From NCBI RefSeq assembly GCF_002000985.1, contig NZ_CP018822.1:266001-330000 (forward strand): a stretch of 64,000 nucleotides of DNA, written 5' to 3'. This DNA is from Streptococcus gallolyticus subsp. gallolyticus DSM 16831. GTDB taxonomy: Bacteria > Bacillota > Bacilli > Lactobacillales > Streptococcaceae. Under the pieces are notes generated by a model. That model had not been told where the DNA came from. It made no database searches and saw only the letters and a list, made by a program, of their open reading frames with translations. Shown here in pieces: positions 28,169 to 53,156 of this stretch (position 1 is its first letter; each line of letters begins with the position of its first letter). A program made the translations under genes and the position numbers.

Positions 28169-28792
28169 CTACTTTTTCTTTCTCATAGAACTGATAGTAT
28201 TTTTCAAGAAAACACCATAGCTTGCACCGGAGGATTTTACCGCAATAGCTTGTGCTACGATAAGTGGTACAAATAGGTTAAGCAAACCAAGGCTGACATT
28301 TGCCCATGAAAAAAGCCCTTCCTGATTCATCACGTAGAAGCCCCAGATGGAACACAGTGGTAAAATCGTGTAGGCTGTCGCCATACCTGCATTGTAAATA
28401 CCATGAATAAGTCCCTTATTATTCTTTTTCATACGAATGGCTGCGGTATGGGCTAATACCTCTACGAATCCAAGAATAAGAATGGACGTTGCTAGCCAAA
28501 TTTGATTTGTAAAAAATAATGGTACAATCCCTACATAGACTGTGAGCAATAAGAGCATGATATAGCCAATACCACTATCTACCTTTGCATTACTGTCCAT
28601 ATTGGTTTCGTTCAATTCTTCGAAGCCAAATAGTTTTTCTTCCCAAGTATGGATAGATACACAAATAAACAGGATAGATGTGACTCGTTGCAAGGCTGGA
28701 ATCTCTCCCCAGTTAAAGACTAGATAAATGCCAACGCAGATAGCAAGAACGGAAATAATAGCAAGACTATTTTTTTGAATTTTTTCAATCAT
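28169..28792 (-). CDS. HXXEE-domain membrane protein 1
   Basis: A 207-aa polytopic membrane protein with six or so hydrophobic segments. The family hallmark HTWEE is at about residues 48-52, at the end of the second helix, and further conserved-looking His residues occur in VEVLAHTAAIRMK and LIHGIYNAGM. HXXEE proteins have no established activity; the paired His/Glu residues within the membrane suggest metal binding or catalysis. AAAGGAG precedes the ATG. It diverges from a broken TetR gene. Two more HXXEE proteins occur in this window. Confidence 0.78.
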   Translation of the reverse strand: MIEKIQKNSLAIISVLAICVGIYLVFNWGEIPALQRVTSILFICVSIHTWEEKLFGFEELNETNMDSNAKVDSGIGYIMLLLLTVYVGIVPLFFTNQIWLATSILILGFVEVLAHTAAIRMKKNNKGLIHGIYNAGMATAYTILPLCSIWGFYVMNQEGLFSWANVSLGLLNLFVPLIVAQAIAVKSSGASYGVFLKNTISSMRKKK

Positions 28793-28942
28793 GAGATGGA
28801 CTCCTTTATGTTTGATGAGCTTATTATAGACTTAGTCTGGCCACTTAAACAAGACACAATTTTTGCAAAAATGTCGCTTTTTCAAAAATAAAGGTATAAA
28901 CTATACTATATTAATTACGATTATGGTGAGGAAAAGGAAACT

Positions 28943-29442
28943 AATGAATGCAAAAGAACGTATCCAAAAAGCTTTTTGGCACTATTACCAAGAAAAACCA
29001 ATTGACCAAATACGTATTAGAGAATTGACTGAAAAGCGGCCTGTAATCGTGGGACATTCTATAAATATTACATTGATATCCACGATTTATTAGAGCAAGA
29101 AGAAAACCAGCTTGTTGAAGATTTCAAAAATGGGATGCTAACCTTGTCTCAAGAAAAAATCCTCGAATCTTGGAAACTATCGTGTTACTCTACCAAACTT
29201 ACGCTTTTAAACTTTCAGCTTTTTTAAAAGCAGGGAATCGCACCATTATCTATCGCCTGAGAGATTTGACTTTAGACATGTACCAAGAAAAGAGGGAATC
29301 ACCTCTTTCAAAAGAAGAACGATTGACTATGGAATACTATTTTCATGGGCTAATCATGGCCTTTGACTATTGGTATAATCATGTTTCTGATATGACTATT
29401 GAAGAATTTCTAGCTATCTTAGGGAATATCAGAAAGATTTAG
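28943..29442 (+). pseudogene. TetR-family regulator with two single-base breaks
   Basis: The N-terminus MNAKERIQKAFWHYYQEKPI is followed, after a missing A near 29036, by ACNRGTFYKYYIDIHDLL in another frame, completing a TetR helix-turn-helix. A second one-base loss in the A-run near 29157 shifts to the frame ending at 29442 (LETIVLLYQTYAFKL to EEFLAILGNIRKI). Both breaks are in A-runs. It would have regulated the divergent HXXEE gene and/or the hydrolase. Confidence 0.75.
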
Positions 29443-29515
29443 CTTTAACTGCCATAATAGAATGAGGTCAGTTTATGAGGGTAATTTTCGATGACAATGA
29501 ATAGAGGGGAGAAAG

Positions 29516-30292
29516 ATGTCTCAATTATTTATTGAAGAGAGAGGGCAAGAGCACCATCAGACGATTATTTTCTTGCATGCGACTGGTGCTAGTGGCCATA
29601 TGTGGCACCATCATTTAGCAGTACTAGAAAGATATTTTCACTGTCTAGCGATTGATTTGCCAGGGCATGGTAGAAGCCGTGAGATAGAATGGACGAATTT
29701 TGAGGATATTACCGAGAACATAGTGGATATCATTAACAAAAAATCCCACGGGAAACCTCATCTAGTGGGACTTTCCTTGGGTGGCTCCCTCATCTTAAAG
29801 TTACTAGAAAGCCACAGTCATTTGGTGGACAAGGTCATCATTGATGGCGCCAGCCACCAGCCCATCAAGGGTTATCGGATAATGGTCATAATGGTGGGGC
29901 TGATGTCCCTGCTTAAAAACACAGCTTTCATCGAAAAGCTGCTAACAAAGATGATGGAAAAAGATGGCGTATCTAGCCAAGAAATCCAGTCCTTTTTGGC
30001 GGATATGCGAGCCGCATCCAGCAAATTTTTTCGCCGTGCCATGACTCAGGCGAATCTCTTAAGAGCTAAGCCTATCTTTCAAAGCCCTGCTCTCTTTCTT
30101 TCAGGAGGCAAGGAATCCCCCTCTATTCACGCATCACATCAGACCTTAGCTAAAGAAAATCCAGATAGCGAATGCGCCTACTATCCCGACAAAGGGCATG
30201 CCTGGCTATTCAGTGACGCCCCTACCCATATCGAGGCTGTCCAATATTTTTTACAGGGGAAGACCTTCCCAGAAAAATTAAAAGGCTTCTGA
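29516..30292 (+). CDS. Alpha/beta hydrolase
   Basis: A 258-aa alpha/beta-fold hydrolase. The oxyanion region IIFLHATGASGHMWHHH is at residues ~18-34, AIDLPGHGRS at ~46-55, the nucleophile elbow GLSLGG around residues 84-89 (Ser about 86), and the catalytic His in DKGHAW near residue 228. The substrate is unknown; relatives include esterases and lactonases. It follows the broken TetR gene by 73 bases with its own GGGAGAAAG site, and sits in the first HXXEE locus. Confidence 0.85.
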   Translation: MSQLFIEERGQEHHQTIIFLHATGASGHMWHHHLAVLERYFHCLAIDLPGHGRSREIEWTNFEDITENIVDIINKKSHGKPHLVGLSLGGSLILKLLESHSHLVDKVIIDGASHQPIKGYRIMVIMVGLMSLLKNTAFIEKLLTKMMEKDGVSSQEIQSFLADMRAASSKFFRRAMTQANLLRAKPIFQSPALFLSGGKESPSIHASHQTLAKENPDSECAYYPDKGHAWLFSDAPTHIEAVQYFLQGKTFPEKLKGF

Positions 30293-30390
30293 CGCCGCTT
30301 TTTTTTGGATGAATCCTATTAACTGTATCAAACCTTGTATAGCATAATATCATTGAATGTGCGGAACAGAATGAGTATCAGAGCTTATAA

Positions 30391-30582: not shown

Positions 30583-31170
30583 CTACTTCTTGTTTAGAGT
30601 ACTGTCTTCCTTCCCCTCCCCAGTTACCTCTGGCCAGTACCACAAAGTAAACAGCCTCCGAGTAATTCCTAAAAGTTCTTCGTCACTGATACTTTTCGGA
30701 TTTTTTACCTGTGCTGCCAATGCCGAAAAAATCCCTGTCAGATAAATATTCATGACTATCTTATTCTTAGGCGTATCTGCAATCGTACTGTTCATCCGGT
30801 GTAGCGTTTTTTCCTGAATTCTTCGAATAAAATGAGCTCGGTTTTGATCACTTAAAAGAACATGAAGCCGATCCTTATATTCCCTGAATTTAGATAAATA
30901 AATACGAAAGAAGTCATCATTTAGTGCATTGCTCTCCCCCAACAACGGCAAAATAGAATCCAATAGATCGTTGATGAATTCATCCTCTGCGTATTCGATT
31001 AATGCAAAGATATCTTGGAAATAACGGTAAAAAGTTGTACGGTTATATCCTGCCAAATCTGTAATTTCCCGAATCGTAATACTGTAAATGTTCTTAACTT
31101 CTGCCAGTTGGAAGCATGTAGTAATAAATACTTCCCTTGTGGCATCTGTAATCTTCGGCTGCTTTTTCAT
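30583..31170 (-). CDS. TetR-family regulator, divergent from the SDR gene
   Basis: A 195-aa regulator with an N-terminal TetR helix-turn-helix (SITIREITDLAGYNRTTFYRYF, residues ~30-51) and a mostly helical ligand domain. It diverges from the SDR-HXXEE-nitroreductase operon, and two CGACA-type palindromes lie between the genes. AGGAGAAACG precedes the ATG. Its role is most likely repression of that operon and itself in response to a small molecule. Confidence 0.87.
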   Translation of the reverse strand: MKKQPKITDATREVFITTCFQLAEVKNIYSITIREITDLAGYNRTTFYRYFQDIFALIEYAEDEFINDLLDSILPLLGESNALNDDFFRIYLSKFREYKDRLHVLLSDQNRAHFIRRIQEKTLHRMNSTIADTPKNKIVMNIYLTGIFSALAAQVKNPKSISDEELLGITRRLFTLWYWPEVTGEGKEDSTLNKK

Positions 31171-31200
31171 CGTTTCTCCTTGTCATCTACTCTTATCATG

Positions 31201-31274
31201 CGACACTTGTCTGATATTGTTGCTTGATGATTCCCATGCTAAAAAGCTATACTGTAATTGTACGACATCTGTCG
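31201..31274 (+). promoter_or_regulatory. SDR-operon promoter with two operators
   Basis: TTGATG (31224-31229), 18 bases, TATACT (31248-31253). Two related sites flank it: CGACActTGTCtG (31201-31213) and the perfect CGACA-tc-TGTCG (31263-31274). The repeat of one motif on both sides of the promoter fits binding by the divergent TetR protein. Confidence 0.78.
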
Positions 31275-31322
31275 CACGATTTCAAGTGAGTAGGCTTCAA
31301 ATATAAAGGAGGTACTTATATT

Positions 31323-32099
31323 ATGAACATCAAAGAAAATACTGTACTCATCACTGGCGGGGCGTCTGGCATTGGATATGCTCTTGCGGAAAGATTTATC
31401 AAGGAAGGAAATGAGGTGATCATCTGTGGACGAAGCATGGATAAATTGGAAGCCGCCAAAAAAAAGCTCCCAGAACTTCATATCAAGCAATGTGACATTT
31501 CCGTAGAAGCGCAACGAATTGCGCTGTTCGAGGAAGTTACAAAAGAATTTCCTGAAATCAATGTCATCGTAAACAATGCAGGTCTGCAGGTTCAAAGAGA
31601 TTTGACACAGGATGTCGACTGGAGCAGCTGTGCCAAAGAAATTGCCACAAACATGGAAGCGCCGATTCATCTGTGCACGCTGTTTGTTCCCGTACTCAAA
31701 GGAAAAGAAAATGCAACGATTATCAATGTCACTAGCGGACTCGCCTTCCTTCCAGCACCTTATGTTCCAATCTACACAGCAACAAAGGCTGGGATGCATA
31801 ACTTCACCTTCTGTCTGCGTCAGCATGTAGCAGAGTGTGGCATTGATGTTGTTGAAGTTATCCCCCCTCCAGTAAATACAAACCTTGGTGGCGCTGGCGT
31901 TCACGCAAATATCGGTGCTGATCTGAACGTATATGCAGATAGTGTCATGGACGGATTAAAAGCAGGTGACAAAGAGTTGACCTTCGGTTTCAGCACGCAA
32001 AATCATGCCAAGTCCAGAAAAGAACTAGAAGCCATGGCTGCAGCCACATGGGCAAATCGCGGTAAGATGACTCCCCCCAGTCTAAAAGAACAGAGGTAA
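31323..32099 (+). CDS. SDR-family oxidoreductase (DltE-like)
   Basis: A 258-aa short-chain dehydrogenase. The NAD(P) loop TGGASGIG is at residues ~11-18, NNAG near 88, the catalytic Ser in NVTSG near 138 and the YxxxK pair (YTATK) near 151-155. Overall similarity is to DltE-type SDRs. The substrate is unknown. An AAAGGAGG lies 8 bases before the start. It heads the TetR-controlled operon with an HXXEE protein and a nitroreductase-fold protein. Confidence 0.86.
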   Translation: MNIKENTVLITGGASGIGYALAERFIKEGNEVIICGRSMDKLEAAKKKLPELHIKQCDISVEAQRIALFEEVTKEFPEINVIVNNAGLQVQRDLTQDVDWSSCAKEIATNMEAPIHLCTLFVPVLKGKENATIINVTSGLAFLPAPYVPIYTATKAGMHNFTFCLRQHVAECGIDVVEVIPPPVNTNLGGAGVHANIGADLNVYADSVMDGLKAGDKELTFGFSTQNHAKSRKELEAMAAATWANRGKMTPPSLKEQR

Positions 32100-32104: not shown

Positions 32105-32281
32105 GTGGCAAATATAGCACTGACAAATTTAAAAACACAACATTTTGTAAGAAGTGGCTGTGACAGAAAAACTGAACAAGAAAAACTAGACGCTCTCCTA
32201 GGTTTCGGTGATGGTTCAGTTTCCTTCACTAAAGAAAGAAAAAAGACGATAGTCGTATCGTCTGGGTGGAATAATGTATAA
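32105..32281 (+). CDS. Possible 58-aa protein between SDR and HXXEE genes
   Basis: A GTG-started frame with AGAGG upstream runs to a TAA that overlaps the next gene's ATG by 8 bases. The product (central KTEQEKLDALLGFGDGSVSF) is hydrophilic with no family that I recognise. The spacing would fit translational coupling, but this could equally be a chance frame in a 174-base gap. Confidence 0.3.
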   Translation: MANIALTNLKTQHFVRSGCDRKTEQEKLDALLGFGDGSVSFTKERKKTIVVSSGWNNV

Positions 32282-32942
32282 AAATTTTTTCAGTAAATGG
32301 TGTGATCAGATCTGGCTGTATCTTGTATACTTCCTGGGAATCCTGATGACCTGCTGTCTCATCTGGAACTGGGATACATGGGAACTAACTCGAAAACTTG
32401 CCTGCATGCTGACGATTGCGGTGACTTTACATATTTTTGAAGAAAATACATTTCCTGCCGGATTTTATTATATGAACAATTTAGGGTTTAAATCGAAAGA
32501 GCCGATGGTTTATCCTCAAAATCGCTGTACAAACATGGTCACAAATCTTGGCGCAACGATTGTACTGATGTTAGTGACATTCTACGTACAGAAAATTGAA
32601 ACGAGTGCTATGGTTCTGATTGTATTCTTCGCACTTGGTGAAACCGTTAATCATACCCTCAGTGGAATTAAAATGCAGGCTCGTTATCAAGATAAAGGGA
32701 AAAAGACAATCTACGCTCCCGGTTTGATGACTTCTTGGTTCATTCTGATTCCATTGGCAACTTCAGCACTAAAATGGCTAGTGACAAATGGTGCCAGTTT
32801 ACTTCAAATCCTAGGCGGAATCGGTATTTTTGTTGGAATCGCCGTTTTTCTCATTCTAGTACCTTTTGCCATCTCCACTCGAGTAAAAAGTAAAGAGTTT
32901 GCTTTTCGTGACAAAGGTTATTTTGAGAAATATGAAAAATAA
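32274..32942 (+). CDS. HXXEE-domain membrane protein 2
   Basis: A 222-aa membrane protein with about six helices. The HXXEE motif is HIFEE at residues ~50-54 (VTLHIFEENTFPAGFYY), and a second conserved-type His appears in ALGETVNHTLSG. It is collinear with the SDR and nitroreductase genes under the 31224 promoter. Its function is unknown; the setting with redox enzymes suggests work on a hydrophobic small molecule at the membrane. Confidence 0.78.
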   Translation: MYKNFFSKWCDQIWLYLVYFLGILMTCCLIWNWDTWELTRKLACMLTIAVTLHIFEENTFPAGFYYMNNLGFKSKEPMVYPQNRCTNMVTNLGATIVLMLVTFYVQKIETSAMVLIVFFALGETVNHTLSGIKMQARYQDKGKKTIYAPGLMTSWFILIPLATSALKWLVTNGASLLQILGGIGIFVGIAVFLILVPFAISTRVKSKEFAFRDKGYFEKYEK

Positions 32943-33071
32943 TGAAGGGAGGTTACCCCTGAAAATTCAATTATGGATGGATGACAATACCGAACGGTAG
33001 GTTGATGTCATCGCCAATGCAAGGTGTCCTCAGATAACAATACATTCAAACATAGAAAAGGAGATGTCCAC

Positions 33072-33599
33072 ATGAACGAAACCATTAAAACCCTCACAAG
33101 TCGTAAAAGTTGCCAGGCCTTCAAACCGGAACACATTTCCCGCGAAGTGCTTGACGAAATCATCGTCGCAGGATTAAACGCACCTTCCGGTATGAATTCA
33201 CAGGGAGCATTACTTCTAGCTGTTCAGGATGACGAGACGGTCGCGGAACTAGCTGCTCTAAATGCCAAAGTCGCAAGAGCTATGCTGTTAAAAATGAATC
33301 CTGAGATGGCTGCTAAGTTTCCGGACGCCCCTTTCCATGGCGCAAAAGATCTGGTTGCAGTCGTTGTCAAGAAAGGACCTACTGCCACCTATGACGGCAG
33401 CCTCGTAATCGGAAATATGCTGAATGCTGCTTGGAGTCTGGGCATTGACAGCCGTTGGGTTCATCGCGGAAAGGAAGTGTTCGCTACAGACGAAGGCAAA
33501 GCCATCCTAGCGAAAGCAGGTATCACGGAGGAAGTCGAAGGAATTGGCTTCTGCATTCTCGGCCATGCGGCACAGGAAAAGCCTAAAACAGAGATTTAA
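33072..33599 (+). CDS. Nitroreductase-family protein
   Basis: A 175-aa FMN-type nitroreductase-fold protein. LTSRKSCQAFKPEHISREVL (residues ~7-26) carries the Arg/Ser FMN-phosphate region, NAPSGMNSQ near 39 is the second FMN segment, and GIGFCILGHAA lies at the C-terminus. It uses NAD(P)H to reduce nitro or enone-like compounds in known relatives. The ATG at 33072 has AAAGGAGATG upstream, so I shorten the open frame that begins at 33024. Last gene of the SDR operon, followed by a terminator. Confidence 0.85.
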   Translation: MNETIKTLTSRKSCQAFKPEHISREVLDEIIVAGLNAPSGMNSQGALLLAVQDDETVAELAALNAKVARAMLLKMNPEMAAKFPDAPFHGAKDLVAVVVKKGPTATYDGSLVIGNMLNAAWSLGIDSRWVHRGKEVFATDEGKAILAKAGITEEVEGIGFCILGHAAQEKPKTEI

Positions 33600-33632: not shown

Positions 33633-33664
33633 GATGCAGAGTCGATTTGATTCTGCATCTTTTT
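33633..33664 (+). terminator. Terminator of the SDR-HXXEE-nitroreductase operon
   Basis: An 11-bp stem (33633-33643 with 33649-33659, one mismatch) followed by five T. Confidence 0.82.
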
Positions 33665-35063: not shown

Positions 35064-38000
35064 ATGAGAAAAATTAGAGATTATTTCCTATTGTTACTTA
35101 CTCCCATAATTGTGTTTATGGGAGTATTGACAACGACAACAGGACAGATTGTTCATGCTGCTAGTGGGAATGAATTAACCAATGTTATTACAGATATTTC
35201 ATTATGGGATGTTAACAATGGACAAACACTTCAACCAAACAGCTCAGGGACTTATAATTTAGTTAAAGATAATAGTTATCGGTATGAAACTACTTTTGAT
35301 TTATCTAAATATGATGGAAAGCTGAATGACGGGGATTATTTTATATTTACTGTTCCAGCTCCAATTACAGTTGAAAATACTAGTTTTGATTTGGAAGACA
35401 AAGAAACAGGCGTAGCTATGGGAACAGCTGTTGTTACGTCAAGTGGAGACAGCAAAGGAGGAACGGTTAATGTTACTCTGAAAAATTTAAAAGATTATCT
35501 TGCTAAAAAAGGTGGAAGTCAAGTTCAAGGTGTCAAAGGAACCTTTTATACTGACTTTAAAATCACGAAGGTCACCAAAAGCGAAACACTGACATATTCA
35601 ACGAACCAAACAACCAAAGAAATAACACATACCATTTCTGTAACAGAACGAGGAACGTCAGATTATACAGATACAATTGGTAAGGAAAATTTTGCCAAAA
35701 TTGGTGGTGTTATGAAAAAAGAATCTTGGAGTTCGGAGATTTTAAATAAGAGTGGAGAATATATTCATAATTGGTATCTACGTGTAAACACTAACCAATC
35801 CACTTATGATTCTATTAGTCTTAAAGATGCTATTCCAAGCGATTCGGCACCTATGCAATATATTCCTGAAAAGCTAAAGATTTATGCAGGCTATTATAAT
35901 ACTAGTCTTGAGCTAACTGATATACAGTTGATGAAAAAAGGTGAAGACTATACCATTGAATATAATAGCGCCTATACTAGTTTTAATTTAAAAATCCTAA
36001 ACACTGCTACTCGCTTAGCAACAAATGGAAAGCCAGCAACATATTCAATTTCTTATTCGACAACCTCTCCAGCAAACGGAACAGATGTTGTAAATGAATT
36101 ATCAATGACTGGTGGAGAGCAAGAAATAACAACGCGTACAGATAGAACAACAACGATTAATCGTGTGACACGTTCTACAAAAATAACAACAGGTGGGACT
36201 ATTCAGTTAGAAACTGGTTATCGTATTACGCTATATAAACAAGACGCAGAAACAGGTAATTTGCTGAATGGGGCAGAATTTGAAATTACATCTCCAAGTG
36301 GTGACAAAGAAACTGTCAAAATTGAAAAAGACGGTGTAGCACAATCTAAAGTTTATTCAGCTGAGGAAGCTAAAAAAGGAAAATTTACAATTGTAGAAAT
36401 AAAGGCACCAAAAGGATATGTTTTAGATCAGACCCCAATTGAAGTAAGTTTAGGAGAAAACGGTATTATTCGTACAATCAAGAATAGCAAGGAAAAATTG
36501 TCTATTCCTGTGACAAAACAGTGGAATGATAACAATAACCAAGATGGTAAACGCCCAGAAGATATAACTGTTCAACTTTATGCTAATGGTCAAGTAGTTG
36601 ATGGTCAAACTATGACATTGAACAATGAGAATAATTGGACGGCCCAATTTGAAAATTTAGCAAAAATAGATGATGATGGCAAAGAAATTGCCTATACAGT
36701 GAAAGAAATTAGTGTAGATGGTTATACTTCCAACATTTCAGGAGATACTGAAAATGGCTATACTATTACAAATACTTATTCACCAGGAAAAGTAGAAATT
36801 TCCGGAACTAAGACATGGAGTGATAATAACAACCAAGACGGTAAACGCCCAGATAGTATCACGATTAACCTTTTAGCTGATGGTGAAAAAGTAGATAGTC
36901 AAACTGTCACTGCTAATAACAACTGGGCTTACAACTTTACCGATTTAGCTAAATACAAAGATGGCAAAGAGGTTGTCTATACAGTAACGGAAGACCCAGT
37001 CTCAGATTATACGACAACTATTAATGGTTACAATATTACCAATTCTTATACCCCAGCAACAACCTCTATTTCTGGAACTAAGACATGGAGTGATAATGAT
37101 AACCAAGACGGTAAACGTCCAGATAGTATCACGATTAACCTTTTAGCCAATGGTAAAAAAGTAGATAGTCAAAAAGTATCAGCAGCCACTAATTGGGCTT
37201 ATCATTTTGGCAATTTACCACAGTATGAAAATGGTCAAGTGATTACTTATACAGTAAATGAAGATGCTGTTGATAGTTACAGTACAAGTATTAATGGTTA
37301 TAATATAACTAATTCTTATACTCCTGAAACGGTTGATGTGAAAGCAACAAAAAATTGGGACGACAACGATAACCAAGATGGTAAGCGTCCAACTTCAATT
37401 ACGGTCAATCTTTTAGCTGATGGTGAGAAGATAAATAGTCAAAAAGTAGTTGCTGCAGCTGATGGCACATGGACAGCTTCCTTTACTAATTTGCCAAAAT
37501 ATAAAGACGGTAAAGAAATTAAATACACCGTTACTGAAGAAGCAGTTGAAGAATATGAGACCATCATTAATGATTTCACCATTACAAATAAGTATATTCC
37601 AAAAGCTATTGAATATAAGGTAACAAAAGTTTGGAAAGATAATAATAACCAAGATGGTAAGCGTCCAAGTGCTATTACAGTTCAATTATATAAATCTGTT
37701 GGCGAGGCAAAACCGACACCAATAGCTGGCAAAACCTTAACTTTAACAGCCGATAATCAAACGAATGACAACACATGGGAAGCTTCCTTTACAAATCTCC
37801 CACAATTTGAAAAAGGACAAGAAATTGCTTACTCTGTGCAAGAAGTAGATACTCCAGAAGGTTATACTGCGTCAGTTGAGGGGCAAACTATCACGAATAG
37901 TCATGACCCAGAAACAATCATCATCTCAGGACAAAAGAAATGGGATGATAACGATAACCAAGATGGTAAGCGAACAACAACTGTCAAAGTTCAAATCTTG

Positions 38001-38933
38001 AAAGGTGAAGAGGTTGTTGATGAAATTGAAGTTAGTGAAGCAAGTAACTGGGCATTTACATCTAAAGCTTTGCCTAAATACGAGAATGGAAAAGAAATTA
38101 CTTATACGGTGAAAGAAGTTGCAGTGACCGCTTATGAAACCAAAATTGAAAAAGATGATGACGGTCAATATACCATTACGAATACTCATACACCTGAAAA
38201 GATTAATTTGTCAGGGCAAAAAGTTTGGAATGACAATAACAACCAAGACGGTATTCGTCCAGAGAACATTACAGTTGAGCTTTTAGCCAATGGTGAAGCA
38301 ACGGGTCAAACCGCAACAGCCAGTGAAGCAACTGCCTGGCAGTATAGTTTTGAAAATCTTGACCGTTATAAAGATAGTAAGGAAGTTAGTTATTCTGTCA
38401 AAGAAGTGAACATTCCAGAAGGCTATAAAGCTGAAGTGGACGGTATGAACGTAACAAATAACCACGTTCCAGAAACAATCACCCTAACTGGTCAGAAAAC
38501 ATGGGATGATAATAATGACCAAGATGGTATTCGACCACAATCCATCACGCTTCACCTTTTAGCCAATGGTGTTGATACGGGCTTAACTACGACAGCGACA
38601 GCTGATACTAACTGGACTTACAGCTTTAAAGATATTGCTAAATATCAAAATGGTAAGGAAGTTACTTATACAGTAAGTGAAGATACTGTTGGTGGCTATA
38701 CTTCAGTAGTTGATGGTATGAATGTTACGAATACACATACGCCAACCACACCAACGACTCCTAAATCAGATAAACCAAATTCGCCATCAAGCAATCAAAA
38801 AAATAAACCGAAACAGTCATCTCTACTTCCAGCAACTGGAGATAAAGGTGACTTGACATTAACTATTTTAGGTGTTTTTCTTATTGTAGCTATTATCTCT
38901 GGCATGATTTATTATAAAATAAGAAAAATGTAA
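35064..38933 (+). CDS. LPXTG-anchored adhesin with eight Cna_B repeats
   Basis: A 1289-aa surface protein. Residues 1-33 are a signal peptide ending near VHAA. About 34-390 form an MSCRAMM-like N-terminal ligand-binding region, followed by a SpaA/prealbumin-like domain (GYRITLYKQDAETGNLLNGA, ~391-475). Then come eight Cna_B domains starting near residues 479, 576, 667, 756, 849, 952, 1047 and 1139, each with a W-x-D-N-x-x-Q-D-G core that is expected to form stabilising isopeptide bonds. After a TTPTTPKSDK linker comes LPATG near 1255, a hydrophobic helix and KIRKM, so a sortase anchors it to the wall. The ligand is unknown; collagen binding is only a family association. Confidence 0.93.
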   Translation: MRKIRDYFLLLLTPIIVFMGVLTTTTGQIVHAASGNELTNVITDISLWDVNNGQTLQPNSSGTYNLVKDNSYRYETTFDLSKYDGKLNDGDYFIFTVPAPITVENTSFDLEDKETGVAMGTAVVTSSGDSKGGTVNVTLKNLKDYLAKKGGSQVQGVKGTFYTDFKITKVTKSETLTYSTNQTTKEITHTISVTERGTSDYTDTIGKENFAKIGGVMKKESWSSEILNKSGEYIHNWYLRVNTNQSTYDSISLKDAIPSDSAPMQYIPEKLKIYAGYYNTSLELTDIQLMKKGEDYTIEYNSAYTSFNLKILNTATRLATNGKPATYSISYSTTSPANGTDVVNELSMTGGEQEITTRTDRTTTINRVTRSTKITTGGTIQLETGYRITLYKQDAETGNLLNGAEFEITSPSGDKETVKIEKDGVAQSKVYSAEEAKKGKFTIVEIKAPKGYVLDQTPIEVSLGENGIIRTIKNSKEKLSIPVTKQWNDNNNQDGKRPEDITVQLYANGQVVDGQTMTLNNENNWTAQFENLAKIDDDGKEIAYTVKEISVDGYTSNISGDTENGYTITNTYSPGKVEISGTKTWSDNNNQDGKRPDSITINLLADGEKVDSQTVTANNNWAYNFTDLAKYKDGKEVVYTVTEDPVSDYTTTINGYNITNSYTPATTSISGTKTWSDNDNQDGKRPDSITINLLANGKKVDSQKVSAATNWAYHFGNLPQYENGQVITYTVNEDAVDSYSTSINGYNITNSYTPETVDVKATKNWDDNDNQDGKRPTSITVNLLADGEKINSQKVVAAADGTWTASFTNLPKYKDGKEIKYTVTEEAVEEYETIINDFTITNKYIPKAIEYKVTKVWKDNNNQDGKRPSAITVQLYKSVGEAKPTPIAGKTLTLTADNQTNDNTWEASFTNLPQFEKGQEIAYSVQEVDTPEGYTASVEGQTITNSHDPETIIISGQKKWDDNDNQDGKRTTTVKVQILKGEEVVDEIEVSEASNWAFTSKALPKYENGKEITYTVKEVAVTAYETKIEKDDDGQYTITNTHTPEKINLSGQKVWNDNNNQDGIRPENITVELLANGEATGQTATASEATAWQYSFENLDRYKDSKEVSYSVKEVNIPEGYKAEVDGMNVTNNHVPETITLTGQKTWDDNNDQDGIRPQSITLHLLANGVDTGLTTTATADTNWTYSFKDIAKYQNGKEVTYTVSEDTVGGYTSVVDGMNVTNTHTPTTPTTPKSDKPNSPSSNQKNKPKQSSLLPATGDKGDLTLTILGVFLIVAIISGMIYYKIRKM
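36498..38745 (+). repeat. Eight tandem Cna_B-coding repeats
   Basis: Units of 267-309 bp. Repeats 2 and 3 are the most alike in their first 100 bases (36815-36880 against 37082-37147), sharing SGTKTWSDN and KRPDSITINLLA at the nucleotide level too, which implies recent duplication. The others have diverged, with 2 of 8 reading GIRP in place of GKRP and one GKRT. Confidence 0.9.
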
Positions 38934-46771: not shown

Positions 46772-47344
46772 TCACCTTCTGTCCCACATACCTGATATCC
46801 CATTTTCCATTAATTTGAACATCAATGTCACGACTTCAAAAATATCTTTATCTGAATCATTTTGATACCAGTAGCTTAAGGTTTGCAGAATAGCCGATAT
46901 GTAGAATTCGAAAATATATATTACTTCTTGATTTTCTTCTACATCATAAAGTTCTTTTAGCCGTTCTTTAATTAGATTTTTCATCTTGATTTCGTACATG
47001 CTAGACCGTTTCTCCCTTATAAGCAAAAAAACTTGTAAGGCATTTTCTTCATAAAATTTTGCGATAGCTATTAAAAGATCAAGTGAATCAATAGTTTTTT
47101 CCATTTCTTCGGAAACCTTTTGCCATTTAGCTACCAGTCTATTTTCTTCTTGTTCTAAAAGATCATACAAATCTAAAAAATGTAGGTAAAAGGTTGAGCG
47201 GTAGACGCCGGCCTTGTCTGTTATTTGCTTAATACGGATTTTATCAAAATCCCTTTCTATCATTAAATCCCAAAAAGCATCAATTAAGTCTTTTTTGGTC
47301 TGCTGTGATTTAATTTCAAATTTATTCATTTTCGGATTAGCCAT
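46772..47344 (-). CDS. TetR-family regulator, divergent from the SCP2 gene
   Basis: A 190-aa TetR regulator: DFDKIRIKQITDKAGVYRSTFYLHFLDLYDLL (residues ~31-63) is the helix-turn-helix, and the C-terminal part is helical with IYIFEFYISAILQTLSYWYQ. It diverges from the SCP2-like gene with an ACGAC-n5-GTCGT palindrome between them. It resembles the broken TetR at 28943 in sequence style (FYxHYxDIHDLLEQEEN against FYLHFLDLYDLLEQEEN), suggesting paralogy within this accessory region. Confidence 0.85.
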   Translation of the reverse strand: MANPKMNKFEIKSQQTKKDLIDAFWDLMIERDFDKIRIKQITDKAGVYRSTFYLHFLDLYDLLEQEENRLVAKWQKVSEEMEKTIDSLDLLIAIAKFYEENALQVFLLIREKRSSMYEIKMKNLIKERLKELYDVEENQEVIYIFEFYISAILQTLSYWYQNDSDKDIFEVVTLMFKLMENGISGMWDRR

Positions 47345-47852: not shown

Positions 47853-48030
47853 TTTTCATATCGAGAAACTCGACTCACACAAAAAAATCACAATAATTTA
47901 AAGTCTAGTGGTAAAAAGTCAATAGAAAGTTGATTAATTTTTAGTTGATTTTCTAGAAAAAAGGGTGCACTAAAAATACCTAGCAAAAAACGCTTTTTTC
48001 ACTAGCTTAACCAAGGACTTGTGCCGATAA

Positions 48031-49284
48031 TCACTTATCTTCCATAGGCCTCCTTGGTGGCGTATAGAGTTGGCGGTTACGTAGTAGCGCATCCACCAGA
48101 CGCACAAATTTTCTAGCGGTTAAGACGATGGCTCGTTTGTGTTGATGTTTAGGAACTTCTTGATACTTCTTCTTGTAAAAGGCTTGATACTCGCTATCAT
48201 GTCGTCTGACAGAGTTGGCGGCTTCAACTAAGTAATAACGGAGATAGCGATTGCCACGTTTGACAAGGTCAGTATTTTGAGAATTAGCGTTCCCAGATTG
48301 ATTCTGTTTCCAATTCAATCCCGCATATTTAGCGACTTGAGGATGGTCTTTAAAGCGTTCAATCTGCCCAATCTCAGCGATAATCCCTGCAGCGTAAACT
48401 TTACCAACACCAGGAACAGAAGTTAAGCACTGGTATTCAGGGATGACTTCTACCATGTCTTCAATAGCTTTATCAATATCTTTAATCATTTGTTCCAGAT
48501 TTCTGATTTCTCGAGCTAATAGCCCGAGAACAACATTGACGGAATCTTGTTGGAGTTTAGAGAGACGATAAGAGCCATTGATAGCTGCTTGAATAGCTTT
48601 AGCTAGCTTTTCAGGAGCTTTGAATCGTCCTCTCCCTAATTTTTGGATAAAGTCCGCTAGGTCTTTGAGAGGAACAGTCGCTAATTCGTCTAGAGTATAG
48701 TCTTCGGTCATTAGGGAAATGATAGCGCTAGACCAAAGAGAGGTCGTTAGATTCTCATTCTTGATTTCAGTTGATAAGGTATTGCACTTATAATAAATAT
48801 TTTCGATAAAGTGTTGTTTTGTTCTTGTCAACTGTTCAATGAGTTGAAGCCTTGTTCTCGTTAGGTGTTGGAGAGCCATATACTTTTCTTCTTTGAGAAA
48901 AGCAGGTGAAAATCGCTCAATACGGAAATAATCGGCTATGTAGAAGGCATCAATGGTATCATTTTTACTTTCTTCAAAGGCATCTCGATATTTCTTAATC
49001 TTATTGGGTTGTTCCACCATGACTTCAACGTTTAAAGCTTTTAAGTTACTATCTTCATGAAAGAACATAGCAGGATGAAAACTATAGAGGCTAGTGGCTT
49101 CCATGCCAATGACGATACGTTCAAATGAATAGGTGTCATTGAGTTCAAGAATTTGGTTCTTGATTGCTTGAGCACCGATTAAGTTATTAGGAAGAGAAGA
49201 TACAAAGGGAGTTGTTGTATCACTAAGCATGATACAGACATCTAATTTGGTAGAGCTAACGTCTAAACCGACAAAACATTTCAT
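48031..49284 (-). CDS. IS110-family transposase, intact
   Basis: A 417-aa DEDD recombinase of the IS110 family, apparently full length. The RuvC-like part opens with CFVGLDVSSTKLDVCIM (Asp7), has IGMEATSLYS with the conserved Glu near 60, and KNDTIDAFYIADY with two Asp near 108-117. The C-terminal Transposase_20 domain has LTSVPGVGKVYAAGIIAEIG and the NQSGNAN segment holding the catalytic Ser. AAAGGAG precedes the ATG. It has inserted between the SCP2 and HXXEE genes. The non-coding stretch upstream of it likely encodes a bridge RNA. Confidence 0.9.
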   Translation of the reverse strand: MKCFVGLDVSSTKLDVCIMLSDTTTPFVSSLPNNLIGAQAIKNQILELNDTYSFERIVIGMEATSLYSFHPAMFFHEDSNLKALNVEVMVEQPNKIKKYRDAFEESKNDTIDAFYIADYFRIERFSPAFLKEEKYMALQHLTRTRLQLIEQLTRTKQHFIENIYYKCNTLSTEIKNENLTTSLWSSAIISLMTEDYTLDELATVPLKDLADFIQKLGRGRFKAPEKLAKAIQAAINGSYRLSKLQQDSVNVVLGLLAREIRNLEQMIKDIDKAIEDMVEVIPEYQCLTSVPGVGKVYAAGIIAEIGQIERFKDHPQVAKYAGLNWKQNQSGNANSQNTDLVKRGNRYLRYYLVEAANSVRRHDSEYQAFYKKKYQEVPKHQHKRAIVLTARKFVRLVDALLRNRQLYTPPRRPMEDK

Positions 49285-49480
49285 TTGGAAGGTCTCCTTT
49301 CATTTGTATTTGGAAAGTTTCTTGACTACTGTAAGGTTCCCCAGAAACACGTTGAACCAACAGCCTCGCCTAAGAGAATTCTAATCACTAGCTCACCTGC
49401 CGCCTGTACGCTACTACGCACAGAAGTGAGCGTAGTGGAAACAGCTAGTGTGTTGGAAGTAGGAACAACGCTTGGGTAAC
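49285..49480 (-). ncRNA. Candidate bridge RNA of the IS110 element
   Basis: The ~195 bases before the transposase start have no gene but are structured, for example TACGC (49407-area) pairing with GCGTA some 20 bases on, in TACGCTACTACGCAC...GAGCGTAG. In IS110-group elements (IS621 is the characterised case) this upstream position encodes a bridge RNA with target- and donor-binding loops. The loop assignments here cannot be made by eye. Confidence 0.5.
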
Positions 49481-49635
49481 AGACTTAAAAATGAAGTCTA
49501 AGCAACAAGGAGAAAAAGAAACAACCATGAGTCCATTCCATGACTCTATTGTTCTGGAAAACCTTGCAATAGTCAAGTTATAAAAAATTGTTAACACTTG
49601 GGATTGAAAAATCCCCATAAACTTATTTTACGAGG
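49478..49635 (+). repeat. ~150-bp repeat, copy 2 (leader of HXXEE gene 3)
   Basis: The full-length partner of 40606-40762. It contains a possible hairpin AGACTT-n7-AAGTCT near 49481-49500, an 18-codon frame starting ATGAGTCCATTC, and the GAGGAG used by the HXXEE gene. Similarity starts at about 49478, which bounds the IS110 element on this side. Confidence 0.8.
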
Positions 49636-49644
49636 AGAAAATTT

Positions 49645-50352
49645 ATGTCATCAACTAATTGGATTTATCAAGTATGGCCTTGGACAGGGCTTGGCTTTGC
49701 ACTTTCTATTTTGATTTTACTTCTGTGCACTGATTTCTTCCGCCAAGATTTTTCAAAATCACGTTGGCGTGACACAGCTTGGCTGGCCTGGTTAGGTACT
49801 TTCTGCTATCTTTTCCACAATGTAGAAGAATATGGGGTGGATATGTTTGGTAACTTCTTTCCCTTCCCAGATACGATGGAAGCGATGGTTGGATTTGCCC
49901 CACCACTTATTTTTTATATGGCAGTTAACATTTCTATGTTTTGGTTTGCTTCGCCCATTGCTGCAAAAATGGCACGCAAGTATCCTCTGATGGGGATGGG
50001 AATGTTCGGAGAACTATTTATTAATGCCATATCTCACCTTATTCCAATTGTAACAGGGACAGGGTACACGGCAGGAACACTTACAGCTGTTGTCATCTTC
50101 TTGCCAGCATCATTTTGGGCTTTCTATGTTGGATTTGGCAAAGGAGAAGGTAAATTTACGTGGAAAGCTTTTGCAACGATTATCCTTATTGCAATTGTCA
50201 ATCATTTGGTCATGTTTGTGGGTCTCACCCTCTTCCAAAATGGACTATATGGTACAACAGGGCTTGTTATCTTCGAAATCTTGAATGCGACGTCTGCCCT
50301 TGCCATGTGGTACGCAGCTGACCATTTCTTAGGAAGGAGAAGAGGAGTCTAA
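49645..50352 (+). CDS. HXXEE-domain membrane protein 3
   Basis: A 235-aa polytopic membrane protein. The motif HNVEE is at residues ~58-62 (CYLFHNVEEYGVDMFG); a second His-rich part is FINAISHLIPIV near 130 and VNHLVMF near 190. About seven helices. It starts with a GAGGAG six bases upstream. It is the largest of three HXXEE proteins in the window and lies with TetR, oleate hydratase and SCP2 genes, the strongest sign that this family acts on fatty acids or related lipids here. Confidence 0.8.
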   Translation: MSSTNWIYQVWPWTGLGFALSILILLLCTDFFRQDFSKSRWRDTAWLAWLGTFCYLFHNVEEYGVDMFGNFFPFPDTMEAMVGFAPPLIFYMAVNISMFWFASPIAAKMARKYPLMGMGMFGELFINAISHLIPIVTGTGYTAGTLTAVVIFLPASFWAFYVGFGKGEGKFTWKAFATIILIAIVNHLVMFVGLTLFQNGLYGTTGLVIFEILNATSALAMWYAADHFLGRRRGV

Positions 50353-50521
50353 ATTTTGAGTTACAAACTCTTTCTTAAACTATTTAAAAGCAGTTAGATT
50401 TTCCAATAAGTTTACGTAGAGATAGATCAACTTTGGCATACAAGTAATGAAAAAATGGTTTGAATATGTTAAGATGAGGATGAGCTTTCATCAAATATTG
50501 TACAGGATGGGAATTCTAAAC

Positions 50522-51100
50522 ATGAAAAATGAACAAATTTCTTTAAATACCAAACGGAGACTTGCTCAAGGGCTCAAACATTTCTTGGATAGTAAGCAGT
50601 TTGATAATATAACAGTCAAGGAAATTATTGACTATGCAGAAGTCGCTAGACCAACTTTCTATTACCACTTTGAAGATATCTATAGTCTCATGGTCTGGAT
50701 GTTTGAAGATGAATTGGTTGAACTTCTCAAAAAAAGTAAGGATTTATTTACTTGGGATGAGGGAATTTTACTAGTTTTAAACTATCTGGATGATCATCGA
50801 CAAATGTGTTTGTCTGTCTATCAGACGATTGGACGAGATGAATTATATAGACTTTTTCATTCAAGTATTAGTCAAATTATGCAGGCATTTATTGATTATT
50901 TGCGGCTAGATATCCCAGATATTAAGGAAGAGTATGTTGATTTTATTAGAGATTTTTATACCATCGCTTTTGCTGGTACCTTGATTGAATGGCTGAAAAA
51001 AACTGATAGAAAAAGTCCTGAAGAGATGATTAACTTATTAGAAGTAACTATCCAAGGCAGTATCAAAAATGCCCTTGAATCAAGTGCCAATCAATTTTAA
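50522..51100 (+). CDS. TetR-family regulator upstream of the oleate hydratase genes
   Basis: A 192-aa regulator from the ATG at 50522 (the open frame starts at 50447 but adds non-conserved residues). The helix-turn-helix is FDNITVKEIIDYAEVARPTFYYHFEDIYSL (residues ~25-54). The C-terminal domain includes a TetR_C-type DFIRDFYTIAFAGTLIEWLKK. It is collinear with HXXEE gene 3 and followed by a large hairpin, then the oleate hydratase pair. It likely controls one or both units. Confidence 0.84.
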   Translation: MKNEQISLNTKRRLAQGLKHFLDSKQFDNITVKEIIDYAEVARPTFYYHFEDIYSLMVWMFEDELVELLKKSKDLFTWDEGILLVLNYLDDHRQMCLSVYQTIGRDELYRLFHSSISQIMQAFIDYLRLDIPDIKEEYVDFIRDFYTIAFAGTLIEWLKKTDRKSPEEMINLLEVTIQGSIKNALESSANQF

Positions 51101-51133
51101 TAAAAAAATTTTTCTAAAAAAGAATAAAATACT

Positions 51134-51195
51134 ATACAAAGTAGCTACCTATGTAAGACATCTTACACAAGCAGCTACTTTGTATCTTTTTTTTT
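51134..51195 (+). terminator. Nested hairpin before the oleate hydratase operon
   Basis: Outer arms ATACAAAGTAGCT (51134-51146) and AGCTACTTTGTAT (51173-51185), inner palindrome TGTAAGA-ca-TCTTACA (51152-51167), then a long T-run. It should terminate the tetR transcript; the inner palindrome may also be a TetR operator for the next promoter. Confidence 0.8.
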
Positions 51196-51246
51196 GCCAT
51201 CAAGTAGGGGTATACTAAAACCATCAAAAGAAAGGAGCCAGACAAA

Positions 51247-51540
51247 ATGATTGATGGCAACTATAATGTAATATTGAAAACTCCTATGGGAGCCAAGAAG
51301 GGTGAGCTTCACTTGGAAGCCACTAATGATGTTTTGACAGGGAATATCACAGTTGGTGGCAAGGGGACAGCACTTGAAAATGGAACAGTTTCGGGTGACA
51401 ACTTCTCCTTCTCGGGTTCTTTGAAATCAGCTCTAGGGAACATCACCTATGATTGCTCAGGAACAGTCGAAGAGAATGCGCTTGTAGCAACCGTAAAAAC
51501 GAAAAAAGGCAATTTCCAATTAAAAGGAAACCGGAAATAA
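51247..51540 (+). CDS. Small beta-rich protein paired with oleate hydratase
   Basis: A 97-aa protein made of repeating short beta-strand and Gly-turn units (KTPMGAKKGELHLEATNDVLTG, NFSFSGSLKSALGNITYDCS, VATVKTKKGNFQLKGNR). Proteins of this type occur next to flavin-dependent oxidoreductases in Firmicutes; the function is unknown, but the fold resembles a small ligand-binding barrel. It is 17 bases upstream of the oleate hydratase start with AAAGGAG before its own ATG. A role in binding the lipid substrate is a guess from context. Confidence 0.65.
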   Translation: MIDGNYNVILKTPMGAKKGELHLEATNDVLTGNITVGGKGTALENGTVSGDNFSFSGSLKSALGNITYDCSGTVEENALVATVKTKKGNFQLKGNRK

Positions 51541-51557
51541 GAAAGGATGTAAACATT

Positions 51558-53156
51558 ATGCTAGGAAATTATAAGAGAACAGATGATGGACAATTTTACT
51601 TTATCGGTGGTGGTATAGGTAGTTTAACTGGTGCAGCTTATCTCCTTCGTGACTGTGGTTTTGATGGAAAAAATATTCATATCATTGAAACATTGCCAAT
51701 TATGGGTGGTTCCAATGATGCGAAAGGAAATCCTGAGGATGGATGGATTATGCGTGGTGAACGGATGCTCAACCGCCAAACCTATGAGAATTTTTGGGAT
51801 ATTTATAGTAGCATTCCCTCTCTTGTTAAGGAGGGGATGTCTGTAACCGACGAAATTTTCGAACATTCAGAAATTCATAAAAGCATTGCAAAGGCTCGTT
51901 TCTTTGATGAAAATGGTGAAATTATGGATACATCAAGCTATGGTTTGAATAAGGCGCACCTAATGCAACTGATTAACCTATGGAAATCTACAGAAGTTGA
52001 TTTAGACGATATCACCATTGAAGACTGGTTTGATGAAGCTTTCTTTGACACCATCTTCTGGTATGCCTATGAGGCAACTTTTGCCTTCCAACCTTGGTCT
52101 TCTGTTATGGAGTTCCGCCGTTATACCCTGCGTTTCTGGCATTTGATCCTCAAACTCATTACTTGTGAAGGAGTATCCTTGACACCTAACAGCCAATACG
52201 AGACTCTGATTGAACCTGTTATGGCAGTCCTTGAGGAAGCTGGTGTTGACTTCATCTACAACACTTCTGTTATTGATATGGATTTTGCTGAGGGGGATGG
52301 TATCACTGTTACTGGTTTGAAAACTGTATCAGATGGTCAAGAAGGCTATATTCCTATTCGAGAAAACGATAACGTGATCACAACTCTTGGCTGTATGACT
52401 GACAATGCTACATTTGGTAGTAAAGATACTCCTGCTACTCTTGATACTTCCTACCCGGTCAGTGCAACCCTTTGGAAAAATATTTCTAAGAAAAAAGCGG
52501 GACTTGGTAATCCAGATAAATTCTTCTCGCACCCAGATAAGTCAGCTTGGATGAGTTTTAACTGTACCTTTAAAGGACATACCTTTACAGAGTGGCTAGA
52601 GAAATATACTCATAATAAGACAGGAGAAGGGCTTACTAGTACCTTTGTTAAATCGCCTTGGGTAATGGAGTTACGACTTCAGGTTCCTGGATTCTTTAAA
52701 AACCAACCCGAAGACTATGATTTTGTTTGGATGTGTGCCTTTAATTCTTATGCCAAAGGGGAACATTATGGCAAGTCTGAATTCGACTGTACTGGTATGG
52801 AAATTTTGGATGAAATTCTTTTAAGCCTACCTATGGATGAAGAAACACGTCAAAAATGTCGTGATGAAGTTGTTGCAGCTATCCCAGTAGCCATGCCTTA
52901 CATTGATGCTCAATTTCTACCGCGTTCTTTAGGGGATCGTCCTGATGTCGTTCCTGCTGGTTCAACTAACCTTGGCTTTACAGGACAATTCTGTGAAGTG
53001 CCTGAAGATGTGGTCTTTACAGAAGAATACTCAGTCCGTGCCAGTCGTATGGCAGTCTACCAGTTAACAGGAAGCAGACGTGAAGTGGCTCCAGTCAAAC
53101 CAATCCGTTATGATGCTCGCATGATATTGGGTGCTGCTGTTCAATTTTTAAAATGA
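51558..53156 (+). CDS. ohyA: Oleate hydratase (short form)
   Basis: FAD-containing hydratase (formerly 67-kDa myosin-cross-reactive antigen) that adds water to the cis-9 bond of oleic and similar host fatty acids, giving 10-hydroxy acids. The FAD motif FYFIGGGIGSLTGAAYLLRD is at residues ~13-32, followed by IIETLPIMGGSNDAKG, the MRGERMLNR segment, FAFQPWSSVMEFRRY, and a C-terminal STNLGFTGQFCEVPEDVVFT. The ATG at 51558 gives 532 aa, shorter by ~55 at the N-terminus than the common 590-aa enzyme; the upstream open frame is the shadow of the previous gene. It detoxifies antimicrobial unsaturated fatty acids in known relatives. Confidence 0.9.
   Translation: MLGNYKRTDDGQFYFIGGGIGSLTGAAYLLRDCGFDGKNIHIIETLPIMGGSNDAKGNPEDGWIMRGERMLNRQTYENFWDIYSSIPSLVKEGMSVTDEIFEHSEIHKSIAKARFFDENGEIMDTSSYGLNKAHLMQLINLWKSTEVDLDDITIEDWFDEAFFDTIFWYAYEATFAFQPWSSVMEFRRYTLRFWHLILKLITCEGVSLTPNSQYETLIEPVMAVLEEAGVDFIYNTSVIDMDFAEGDGITVTGLKTVSDGQEGYIPIRENDNVITTLGCMTDNATFGSKDTPATLDTSYPVSATLWKNISKKKAGLGNPDKFFSHPDKSAWMSFNCTFKGHTFTEWLEKYTHNKTGEGLTSTFVKSPWVMELRLQVPGFFKNQPEDYDFVWMCAFNSYAKGEHYGKSEFDCTGMEILDEILLSLPMDEETRQKCRDEVVAAIPVAMPYIDAQFLPRSLGDRPDVVPAGSTNLGFTGQFCEVPEDVVFTEEYSVRASRMAVYQLTGSRREVAPVKPIRYDARMILGAAVQFLK

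What the first reader, a model, noticed from the sequence alone, without database searches (positions are those of the whole stretch)
28169..53156. Three HXXEE-TetR loci with lipid enzymes in one accessory region
Three HXXEE membrane proteins (28169-28792 HTWEE, 32274-32942 HIFEE, 49645-50352 HNVEE) each sit beside TetR genes and a different small-molecule enzyme: alpha/beta hydrolase; SDR and nitroreductase; SCP2 protein and oleate hydratase. HXXEE proteins have no established activity. Repeated pairing with oleate hydratase, SCP2 and redox enzymes suggests membrane enzymes or carriers for fatty acids or related host lipids. The motifs and gene order are seen; the function is inference.
Basis: partly seen in the sequence, partly recalled or inferred. 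Interest (0 to 1): 0.75.

Follow-up and report, generated by a model that had tools for sequence, protein, structure and literature searches.

The report
TetR-controlled HXXEE membrane enzyme modules
Three different small membrane proteins of the HXXEE family sit close together in one bacterial genome, each near an intact or decayed TetR repressor gene; a distant relative, MucF, is known to cut the fatty tail off an antibiotic, so these look more like imported detoxification modules than parts of a fatty-acid pathway.

Summary
In detail: the genome's only three PF13787 genes lie within 22 kb. The premise that the family has no established activity is out of date: MucF, an HXXEE protein of Streptococcus mutans, is a membrane deacylase that removes the N-fatty-acyl chain of reutericyclin (PMC10161427), and lies beside TetR genes. 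Window proteins and MucF share H..EE, a later His and Y..G, but are distant (long versus short type). In a hand-picked survey the recurrent partner is TetR, not lipid genes: adjacent in 37 of 95 HXXEE loci (15 of 16 long-type loci of the genus, order and phylum samples; 2 of 17 of the HXXEE3 family), against 10 of 708 genes further away. Oleate hydratase does not track HXXEE (10 of 35 genomes with it, 82 of 212 without). An IS110 copy separates HXXEE3 from SCP2 and its probable TetR; a hairpin separates it from oleate hydratase; HXXEE1 has a frameshifted TetR remnant. Best reading: horizontally acquired, TetR-regulated membrane deacylase modules; regulation is fairly well supported, the chemistry inferred. 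Side finding: the IS110 right end adjoins a gene start in 23 of 27 copies examined.

The parts
28169..28792 (-). HXXEE1 (HTWEE), 207 aa, long-type PF13787 membrane protein
   Evidence: Pfam HXXEE 32 bits, cut-off 25; two relatives besides itself, 61% and 45% identity
28944..29440 (+). Decayed TetR gene, divergent from HXXEE1; pieces lie in different frames
   Evidence: Middle piece 65% identical to TetR 46772-47344 over 23 aa; last piece weak TetR_C_8 (E 0.0036); first and middle pieces no Pfam match up to E 1
29516..30292 (+). Alpha/beta hydrolase; DNA relatives (64-71%) in 12 other genomes of the genus among 117 searched
   Evidence: Pfam; DNA search
30583..31170 (-). TetR regulator divergent from the SDR-HXXEE2-nitroreductase genes
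   Evidence: TetR_N 25.6 bits, cut-off 24
31262..31275 (.). Candidate TetR operator, imperfect inverted repeat ACGACATCTGTCGC, just after a promoter-like -10 site
   Evidence: the motif was defined after seeing these sites
31323..32099 (+). SDR oxidoreductase, first gene of the presumed HXXEE2 unit
   Evidence: adh_short 152 bits
32274..32942 (+). HXXEE2 (HIFEE), 222 aa, long type
   Evidence: Pfam 41.8 bits; 91 database proteins including itself; AF2 model pLDDT 97.4
33024..33599 (+). Nitroreductase-family protein; a terminator-like site follows at 33633
   Evidence: Pfam
46772..47344 (-). TetR regulator; a 44% relative sits divergently 47 bp from the HXXEE3 relative in Lachnospiraceae locus L094
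47460..47474 (.). Candidate TetR operator ACGACAGCTAGTCGT, following a promoter-like -10 site
   Evidence: similar site in L094
47505..47852 (+). SCP2-domain protein, 115 aa, divergent from the TetR
   Evidence: SCP2 25.8 bits, cut-off 21.3
47897..49640 (-). IS110-family element (transposase 48031-49284) between SCP2 and HXXEE3, ending 4 bp before the HXXEE3 start codon
   Evidence: 1744 bp identical to a second copy in the same genome
49645..50352 (+). HXXEE3 (HNVEE), 235 aa, long type
   Evidence: Pfam 40.5 bits; 22 named loci with relatives; AF2 model pLDDT 89.1
50447..51100 (+). TetR regulator downstream of HXXEE3
   Evidence: TetR_C_8 71.8 bits
51126..51193 (.). Terminator-like hairpin (33-nt arms) between this TetR and the oleate hydratase genes
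   Evidence: the scan lists it on the minus strand only; the T run on the plus strand is my reading
51247..51540 (+). 97-aa protein without a Pfam or NCBIfam match at E 0.001
51453..53156 (+). Oleate hydratase (longest ORF; the true start is probably further in), one of two in this genome
   Evidence: NCBIfam NF010584 582.1 bits, cut-off 567; other copy at G000:C1:1839655

Best explanation
Each HXXEE gene is the enzyme of a TetR-controlled detoxification module acquired horizontally. An incoming acylated, membrane-active small molecule (an N-acyl antibiotic such as a reutericyclin-like compound, or a similar acylated natural product) binds the TetR, which leaves its operator in the shared promoter. 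The HXXEE protein is then made in the membrane, where the conserved H..EE / His / Y..G set hydrolyses the acyl bond and removes the fatty tail. Co-located oxidoreductases and hydrolases would change the compound further. HXXEE1 has lost its neighbouring TetR by frameshifts, and HXXEE3 has been cut off from its probable TetR-controlled promoter by an IS110 element. Shown: gene content, residue conservation, TetR adjacency across sampled genomes, the remnant TetR, the IS insertion. Inferred: hydrolytic activity of these three, substrates, TetR ligands, operators, repression.
For: Family activity: MucF35 and 17 homologues tested deacylate reutericyclin, and strains without the biosynthetic cluster carry them (PMC10161427). 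MucF equivalents located by synteny in two genomes (G213, G127): KS-ACP-TE protein next door (Pfam tested on the G213 one), condensation-domain protein about 5 kb on, TetR divergent at 82 and 81 bp. Shared residues: H58, E61, E62, H131, Y141, G144 (HXXEE3 numbering) invariant in 23 of 23 long-type sequences chosen and the equivalent six in 61 of 61; MucF equivalent has HDFEE, H94 and YVPG. HXXEE3-family profile against short-type profile aligns the whole core, E 5e-4, probability 31. TetR immediate neighbour in 37 of 95 loci, 36 of 37 upstream, 31 divergent, versus 10 of 708 genes at offset 4 or more; Pfam TetR_N in 24 of 117 nearest genes and at most 2 of 110 genes five places away. Plasmids: TetR divergent from HXXEE plus a TetR-MFS pair on two Lactiplantibacillus plasmids, HXXEE after ABC and outer-membrane efflux genes in Raoultella.
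Against: The window proteins are distant from MucF: a BLAST of the MucF equivalent gives only a 16-residue match to HXXEE2 (E 3.2) and none to the other two at E 10. HXXEE2 and short-type profiles align poorly (probability 10, only the Y..G part). 9 of 59 genus proteins called at a PF13787 match have no H..EE at all, so the motif His is not universal. TetR adjoins only 2 of 17 HXXEE3-family loci and 20 of 62 short-type loci. The genome shows no NRPS condensation domain, so no muc cluster. The Lactococcus plasmid context lists no TetR. Active-site geometry could not be measured.
Confidence: 0.5

Rival explanations
1. One reading: the three proteins are enzymes or carriers of a fatty-acid (host lipid) response, working with oleate hydratase and SCP2.
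For: SCP2 and HXXEE3 may have been one unit before the IS insertion (44 bp on one side of the IS, 4 bp on the other). The oleate hydratase ORF starts 1.1 kb downstream of HXXEE3. A second genome (G196) has oleate hydratase about 7 kb from HXXEE genes. Acyltransferase among 7 of 117 nearest genes.
Against: No co-occurrence of oleate hydratase with HXXEE (10 of 35 versus 82 of 212 genomes); no oleate hydratase or SCP2 match in 22 loci of the HXXEE3 family; terminator-like hairpin between.
Confidence: 0.2
2. In the long subtype, HXXEE proteins are accessory or immunity membrane proteins of efflux systems, not enzymes.
For: Efflux genes near HXXEE on three of four plasmids looked at and in muc, where a DHA2 transporter and a small export protein accompany mucF.
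Against: All tested short homologues hydrolyse reutericyclin; the same polar residues are invariant in the long sequences aligned, which suggests catalysis. No efflux gene is named beside the window's three.
Confidence: 0.15
3. The clustering is incidental: an accessory, IS- and integrase-bearing region that gathers unrelated TetR-regulated genes; no shared function of the three.
For: No DNA-level match of the three HXXEE genes in the other 116 genomes of two relative searches; IS110 copy, integrase and RepB genes nearby; the three HXXEE fall in different groups.
Against: TetR adjacency is far above background in several lineages (18 of 42 groups at 60% identity); all three genome copies fall in 22 kb.
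Confidence: 0.15

Closest known systems
MucF, reutericyclin N-deacylase of Streptococcus mutans (PMC10161427, PMC9112991)
   Same: PF13787 core with H..EE, second His, Y..G; membrane protein; TetR gene beside it, divergent in the syntenic copies found here; in strains without the biosynthetic cluster read by the authors as detoxification
   Different: MucF is the short type (0.5 kb gene; syntenic copies 167 aa, motif from residue 17); window proteins are long (207-235 aa, motif from residue 48 to 58), without significant BLAST similarity to it, outside any muc cluster, substrate unknown
Lactiplantibacillus plasmid TetR-HXXEE modules
   Same: TetR divergent from HXXEE on accessory DNA
   Different: HXXEE found with a short-type query; MFS transporter nearby instead of oxidoreductases
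Oleate hydratase (MCRA, PF06100)
   Same: a family member lies 1.1 kb from HXXEE3
   Different: probably a separate unit; not a recurrent HXXEE partner in 247 genomes

Membership tests
Pfam HXXEE (PF13787) | score above curated cut-off and H-x-x-E-E motif | tested here: met
   32.0, 41.8, 40.5 bits against 25; HTWEE, HIFEE, HNVEE
MucF-type reutericyclin deacylase | shared polar residues of the core (H..EE, later His, Y..G) | tested here: met
   that these are catalytic is inference
MucF-type reutericyclin deacylase | close relationship to MucF (short gene, clear sequence similarity) | tested here: not met
   long type; the MucF equivalent gives no significant BLAST match to the three
MucF-type reutericyclin deacylase | lies in a muc-like NRPS/PKS cluster (not required of detoxifying homologues) | tested here: not met
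   no condensation domain in the genome at E 0.001
MucF-type reutericyclin deacylase | removes the N-acyl chain from reutericyclin | not testable with these tools
   needs an assay
TetR-HXXEE divergent module | TetR gene immediately upstream and divergent | tested here: inconclusive
   HXXEE1: frameshifted remnant; HXXEE2: TetR divergent from the SDR, one gene upstream; HXXEE3: TetR now separated by SCP2 and IS110, adjacent in relative L094
Known membrane enzyme folds in the PDB | clear structural match | tested here: inconclusive

The most novel reading that the evidence does not exclude
HXXEE proteins form a broad, mobile class of membrane-embedded amidases, of a fold without a clear match among solved structures, often paired with their own TetR sensor, that strip the fatty tail from acylated antibiotics or signals; the long subtype seen here would be a second, uncharacterised arm of the family with other substrates.
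Probability: 0.35. Interest if true: 0.7.

Novelty: new variant of a known kind. Interest (0 to 1): 0.45.

Why it matters
Pfam still describes the family as of unknown function although MucF and 17 homologues have been assayed. If the long subtype uses the same chemistry, gut and oral bacteria carry a little-noticed, inducible way to inactivate acylated antimicrobials, and the adjacent TetR offers a direct handle: its ligand would point to the substrate.

Tried and rejected
Oleate-hydratase link: tested by co-occurrence and distance in 247 genomes and dropped; pairs on different contigs of draft genomes could not be measured, and at least six of the 35 genomes hold only fragments.

A common operator for all TetR-HXXEE pairs: an ACGACA..TGTCGT repeat scores 11 of 12 in three regions only (two window ones and L094) of 32 scored, and 10 of 12 in the glycosyltransferase promoter; it was defined after seeing the first three. 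Viral contigs held no HXXEE2 relative. A phylum search with the HXXEE2 profile matched 3 of 398 genomes including its own, so the neighbourhoods of its clostridial relatives were not seen. Contexts of HXXEE1 relatives were not available (contigs of 1.3 and 2.3 kb). The TetR_N genome search (40 of the 92 HXXEE genomes; 405 matches in all) had a cut-off list and was not used for distances. The condensation-domain search took 80 of the 92.

Limits of the survey: 60 of 118 genus matches, 17 of 18 non-genus matches of the order search, 2 from the phylum search and the 22 HXXEE3-family loci were used; the genus loci were chosen by hand for variety, so the counts are not a random sample. In the TetR count 6 of 101 loci were dropped because no HXXEE gene was called at the expected place (L069, L101, L111, L113, L114, L115). 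L089 and L093, counted as short, are truncated or odd gene calls. Grouped at 60% identity, 18 of 42 groups have an adjacent TetR. The TetR profile was built partly from TetR genes beside HXXEE, which may favour near over far; the independent Pfam tally shows the same contrast. Alignments A5 and A6 are mixtures of unrelated genes, used only as containers for those tallies. Plasmid contexts: 4 of 27 hits were opened, and that collection's gene tables are incomplete.
Full report
What is there. The three reported ORFs are real and are the genome's complete set of PF13787 matches. They fall within 22 kb of a 2.49 Mb genome. In the genus 92 of 247 sampled genomes have at least one such match, and two, this one and G127, have three or more; those of G127 are scattered over the chromosome. 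The three proteins belong to different groups: in a comparison with 59 other HXXEE-region proteins of the genus, HXXEE1 and HXXEE3 group with nothing else and HXXEE2 joins a group of 12. HXXEE2 has 91 database proteins counting itself, from 86% identity down; the five with a name are from Clostridiales, Lachnospiraceae, Oscillospiraceae (two) and an Anaerostipes. HXXEE3's closest named locus is a Lachnospiraceae genome at 59%. At the DNA level the three HXXEE genes had no match in the other 116 genomes of two relative searches, while the alpha/beta hydrolase gene had one in 12 other genomes of the genus. This fits horizontal acquisition.

The family is not without known activity. A full-text search for 'HXXEE' returned five papers, of which I saw passages. 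PMC9112991 (passages) and PMC8757879 (passages) name MucF of Streptococcus mutans as an HXXEE protein and acylase. PMC10161427 (abstract, passages, sections 9 and 20) shows that MucF, a membrane protein, removes the N-1 fatty acyl group of reutericyclin, that 17 homologues did so too, and that most strains with such a gene lack the biosynthetic cluster, which the authors read as detoxification. The gene is 0.5 kb long.

Placing the window proteins relative to MucF. I found muc-like clusters by synteny: in G213 and G127 a 167-aa HXXEE gene lies beside a 911-913-aa protein (KS-ACP-TE by Pfam in G213) and, about 5 kb on, a protein with a condensation domain; in G043 the condensation protein is present at a similar distance but another gene lies next door. 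These MucF equivalents are of the short type (mostly 156-196 aa, motif near residue 17), whereas the window proteins are long (207-235 aa, motif starting at residue 48-58). A BLAST of the MucF equivalent finds nothing significant among the three. The shared core rests on Pfam, on a profile comparison of the HXXEE3 family with the short type that aligns from the H..EE to the Y..G segment (E 5e-4, probability 31), and on residues: H58, E61, E62, H131, Y141 and G144 are invariant in 23 chosen long-type sequences, the equivalent six in 61, and the MucF equivalent has HDFEE, H94 and YVPG. Against this: the comparison of the HXXEE2 family with the short type is weak, and 9 of 59 genus proteins at a PF13787 match have no H..EE, among them those in the arrangement with an acyltransferase neighbour. 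Models of HXXEE2 (pLDDT 97.4) and HXXEE3 (89.1) are bundles of six and seven long helices, without a clear match among solved structures.

Neighbourhood survey. Nearest genes of at least 90 aa (117 genes, both sides, 59 genus loci) were scanned with Pfam: TetR_N in 24, AraC-type HTH in 7, acyltransferase in 7. In the control set of 110 genes five places away TetR_N is not among the 25 families shown, whose smallest count is 2. With a TetR profile made here, 37 of 95 loci have an immediately adjacent TetR. By subset: genus long 10 of 11, order and phylum long 5 of 5, genus short 16 of 48, order short 4 of 14, HXXEE3 family 2 of 17; so 15 of 16 long-type loci outside the HXXEE3 family. In 36 of 37 the TetR lies upstream of HXXEE, in 31 divergently, in 31 of 37 with a gap under 150 bp; the exception in direction is L092, downstream on the same strand. 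Genes at offset 4 or more: 10 of 708. On plasmids, two Lactiplantibacillus contexts show TetR divergent from HXXEE and a TetR-MFS pair nearby, a Raoultella one shows HXXEE after ABC and outer-membrane efflux genes, a Lactococcus one neither.

Oleate hydratase. 35 of 247 genomes have a PF06100 match, some only fragments. HXXEE is present in 10 of these 35 and in 82 of the other 212 (my intersection of the lists). Only this genome and G196 have the two within 10 kb on one contig. None of the 22 loci with HXXEE3 relatives gave a match to the window's oleate hydratase or SCP2 protein (some loci are short). The window's oleate hydratase is 33-36% identical to the six other copies compared, one of them the second copy of this genome, which is itself preceded by a TetR gene. 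Between HXXEE3-TetR and the oleate hydratase lies a hairpin with 33-nt arms; the scan lists it as terminator-like on the minus strand, and a T run also follows it on the plus strand. So oleate hydratase looks like a neighbour with its own control rather than a partner.

Each module as it stands. HXXEE1: upstream and divergent is a TetR gene in pieces. The middle piece is 65% identical over 23 residues to the TetR at 46772, the last piece has a weak TetR_C_8 match (E 0.0036); the other two pieces have no Pfam match by themselves. HXXEE2: TetR 30583 is divergent from the SDR; SDR, HXXEE2 and nitroreductase follow on one strand with gaps of 174 and 81 bp, and a terminator-like site follows at 33633; that they form one transcript is inference. 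HXXEE3: TetR 46772 is divergent from SCP2; an IS110 element of 1744 bp, identical to another copy in the genome, lies between SCP2 and HXXEE3 and ends 4 bp before the HXXEE3 start. In the Lachnospiraceae locus L094 a 44% relative of this TetR is divergent from the HXXEE3 relative at 47 bp, so this TetR is the likely original regulator. An inverted repeat ACGACA..TGTCGT lies after a promoter-like -10 site in the HXXEE2 and HXXEE3 units and also between TetR and HXXEE in L094; it was recognised by eye and then scored, so it is a lead only.

How it most likely works. Shown: TetR adjacency and conserved polar residues. From the literature: MucF chemistry. Inferred: the long HXXEE proteins are membrane hydrolases that remove acyl chains from toxic or signalling molecules, induced through TetR when the molecule is present. 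Confidence 0.5 overall; that TetR regulates the long HXXEE genes outside the HXXEE3 family I would put higher, that these three are hydrolases lower.

A side result. The right end of the IS110 element carries GAGGAG. In 23 of 27 right ends examined (of 37 matches in 237 genomes of the genus; those with a fetched locus that reach the end, the window's own included) a frame open for at least 40 codons starts within 22 nt downstream, 22 of them with ATG at 0-7 nt, against 24% of random positions for any start and 9% for ATG. Copies in one genome or close relatives are not independent. It seems to land at Shine-Dalgarno sequences. A search for papers holding 'IS110' and 'Shine-Dalgarno' listed 7 titles, none on this subject by title (listing only); two narrower searches returned none. 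HXXEE3 is one of the genes whose upstream region now ends in this element.

Noticed in passing
window 47897-49640; copies in L194-L197, L200-L228: IS110-family element whose right end (GAGGAG) adjoins a gene start in 23 of 27 right ends examined: apparent targeting of Shine-Dalgarno sequences. Whether the GAGGAG belongs to the element or to the target was not settled.
   Followed up: partly
window 53329-54504 and 54636-55184: Glycosyltransferase above the NCBIfam cut-off for the macrolide glycosyltransferase family (284.7 bits, cut-off 260), divergent from a TetR that clusters (single linkage) with TetR genes beside MucF-like genes; another possible detoxification module.
   Followed up: partly
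window 28944-29440: TetR gene decayed by frameshifts, divergent from HXXEE1.
   Followed up: partly
window 55912-60242; L046: Integrase, RepB and three further genes; relatives of these five lie next to a short HXXEE gene in genome G239.
   Followed up: no
window 35064-38933: 1289-aa surface protein with Cna_B repeats and an LPXTG anchor match.
   Followed up: no
L070, L073, L076, L079-L081: PF13787 proteins of the short type without an H..EE motif, beside a gene cluster (c7) that by count fits the acyltransferase matches, and in five of the six beside one (c8) that fits the HHH/SLBB matches.
   Followed up: no
L091, L092: Long HXXEE gene after two or three roughly 600-aa beta-lactamase-family proteins, with an alpha/beta hydrolase gene next (L091) or two genes on (L092) (Pfam run on one protein of each kind).
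   Followed up: no
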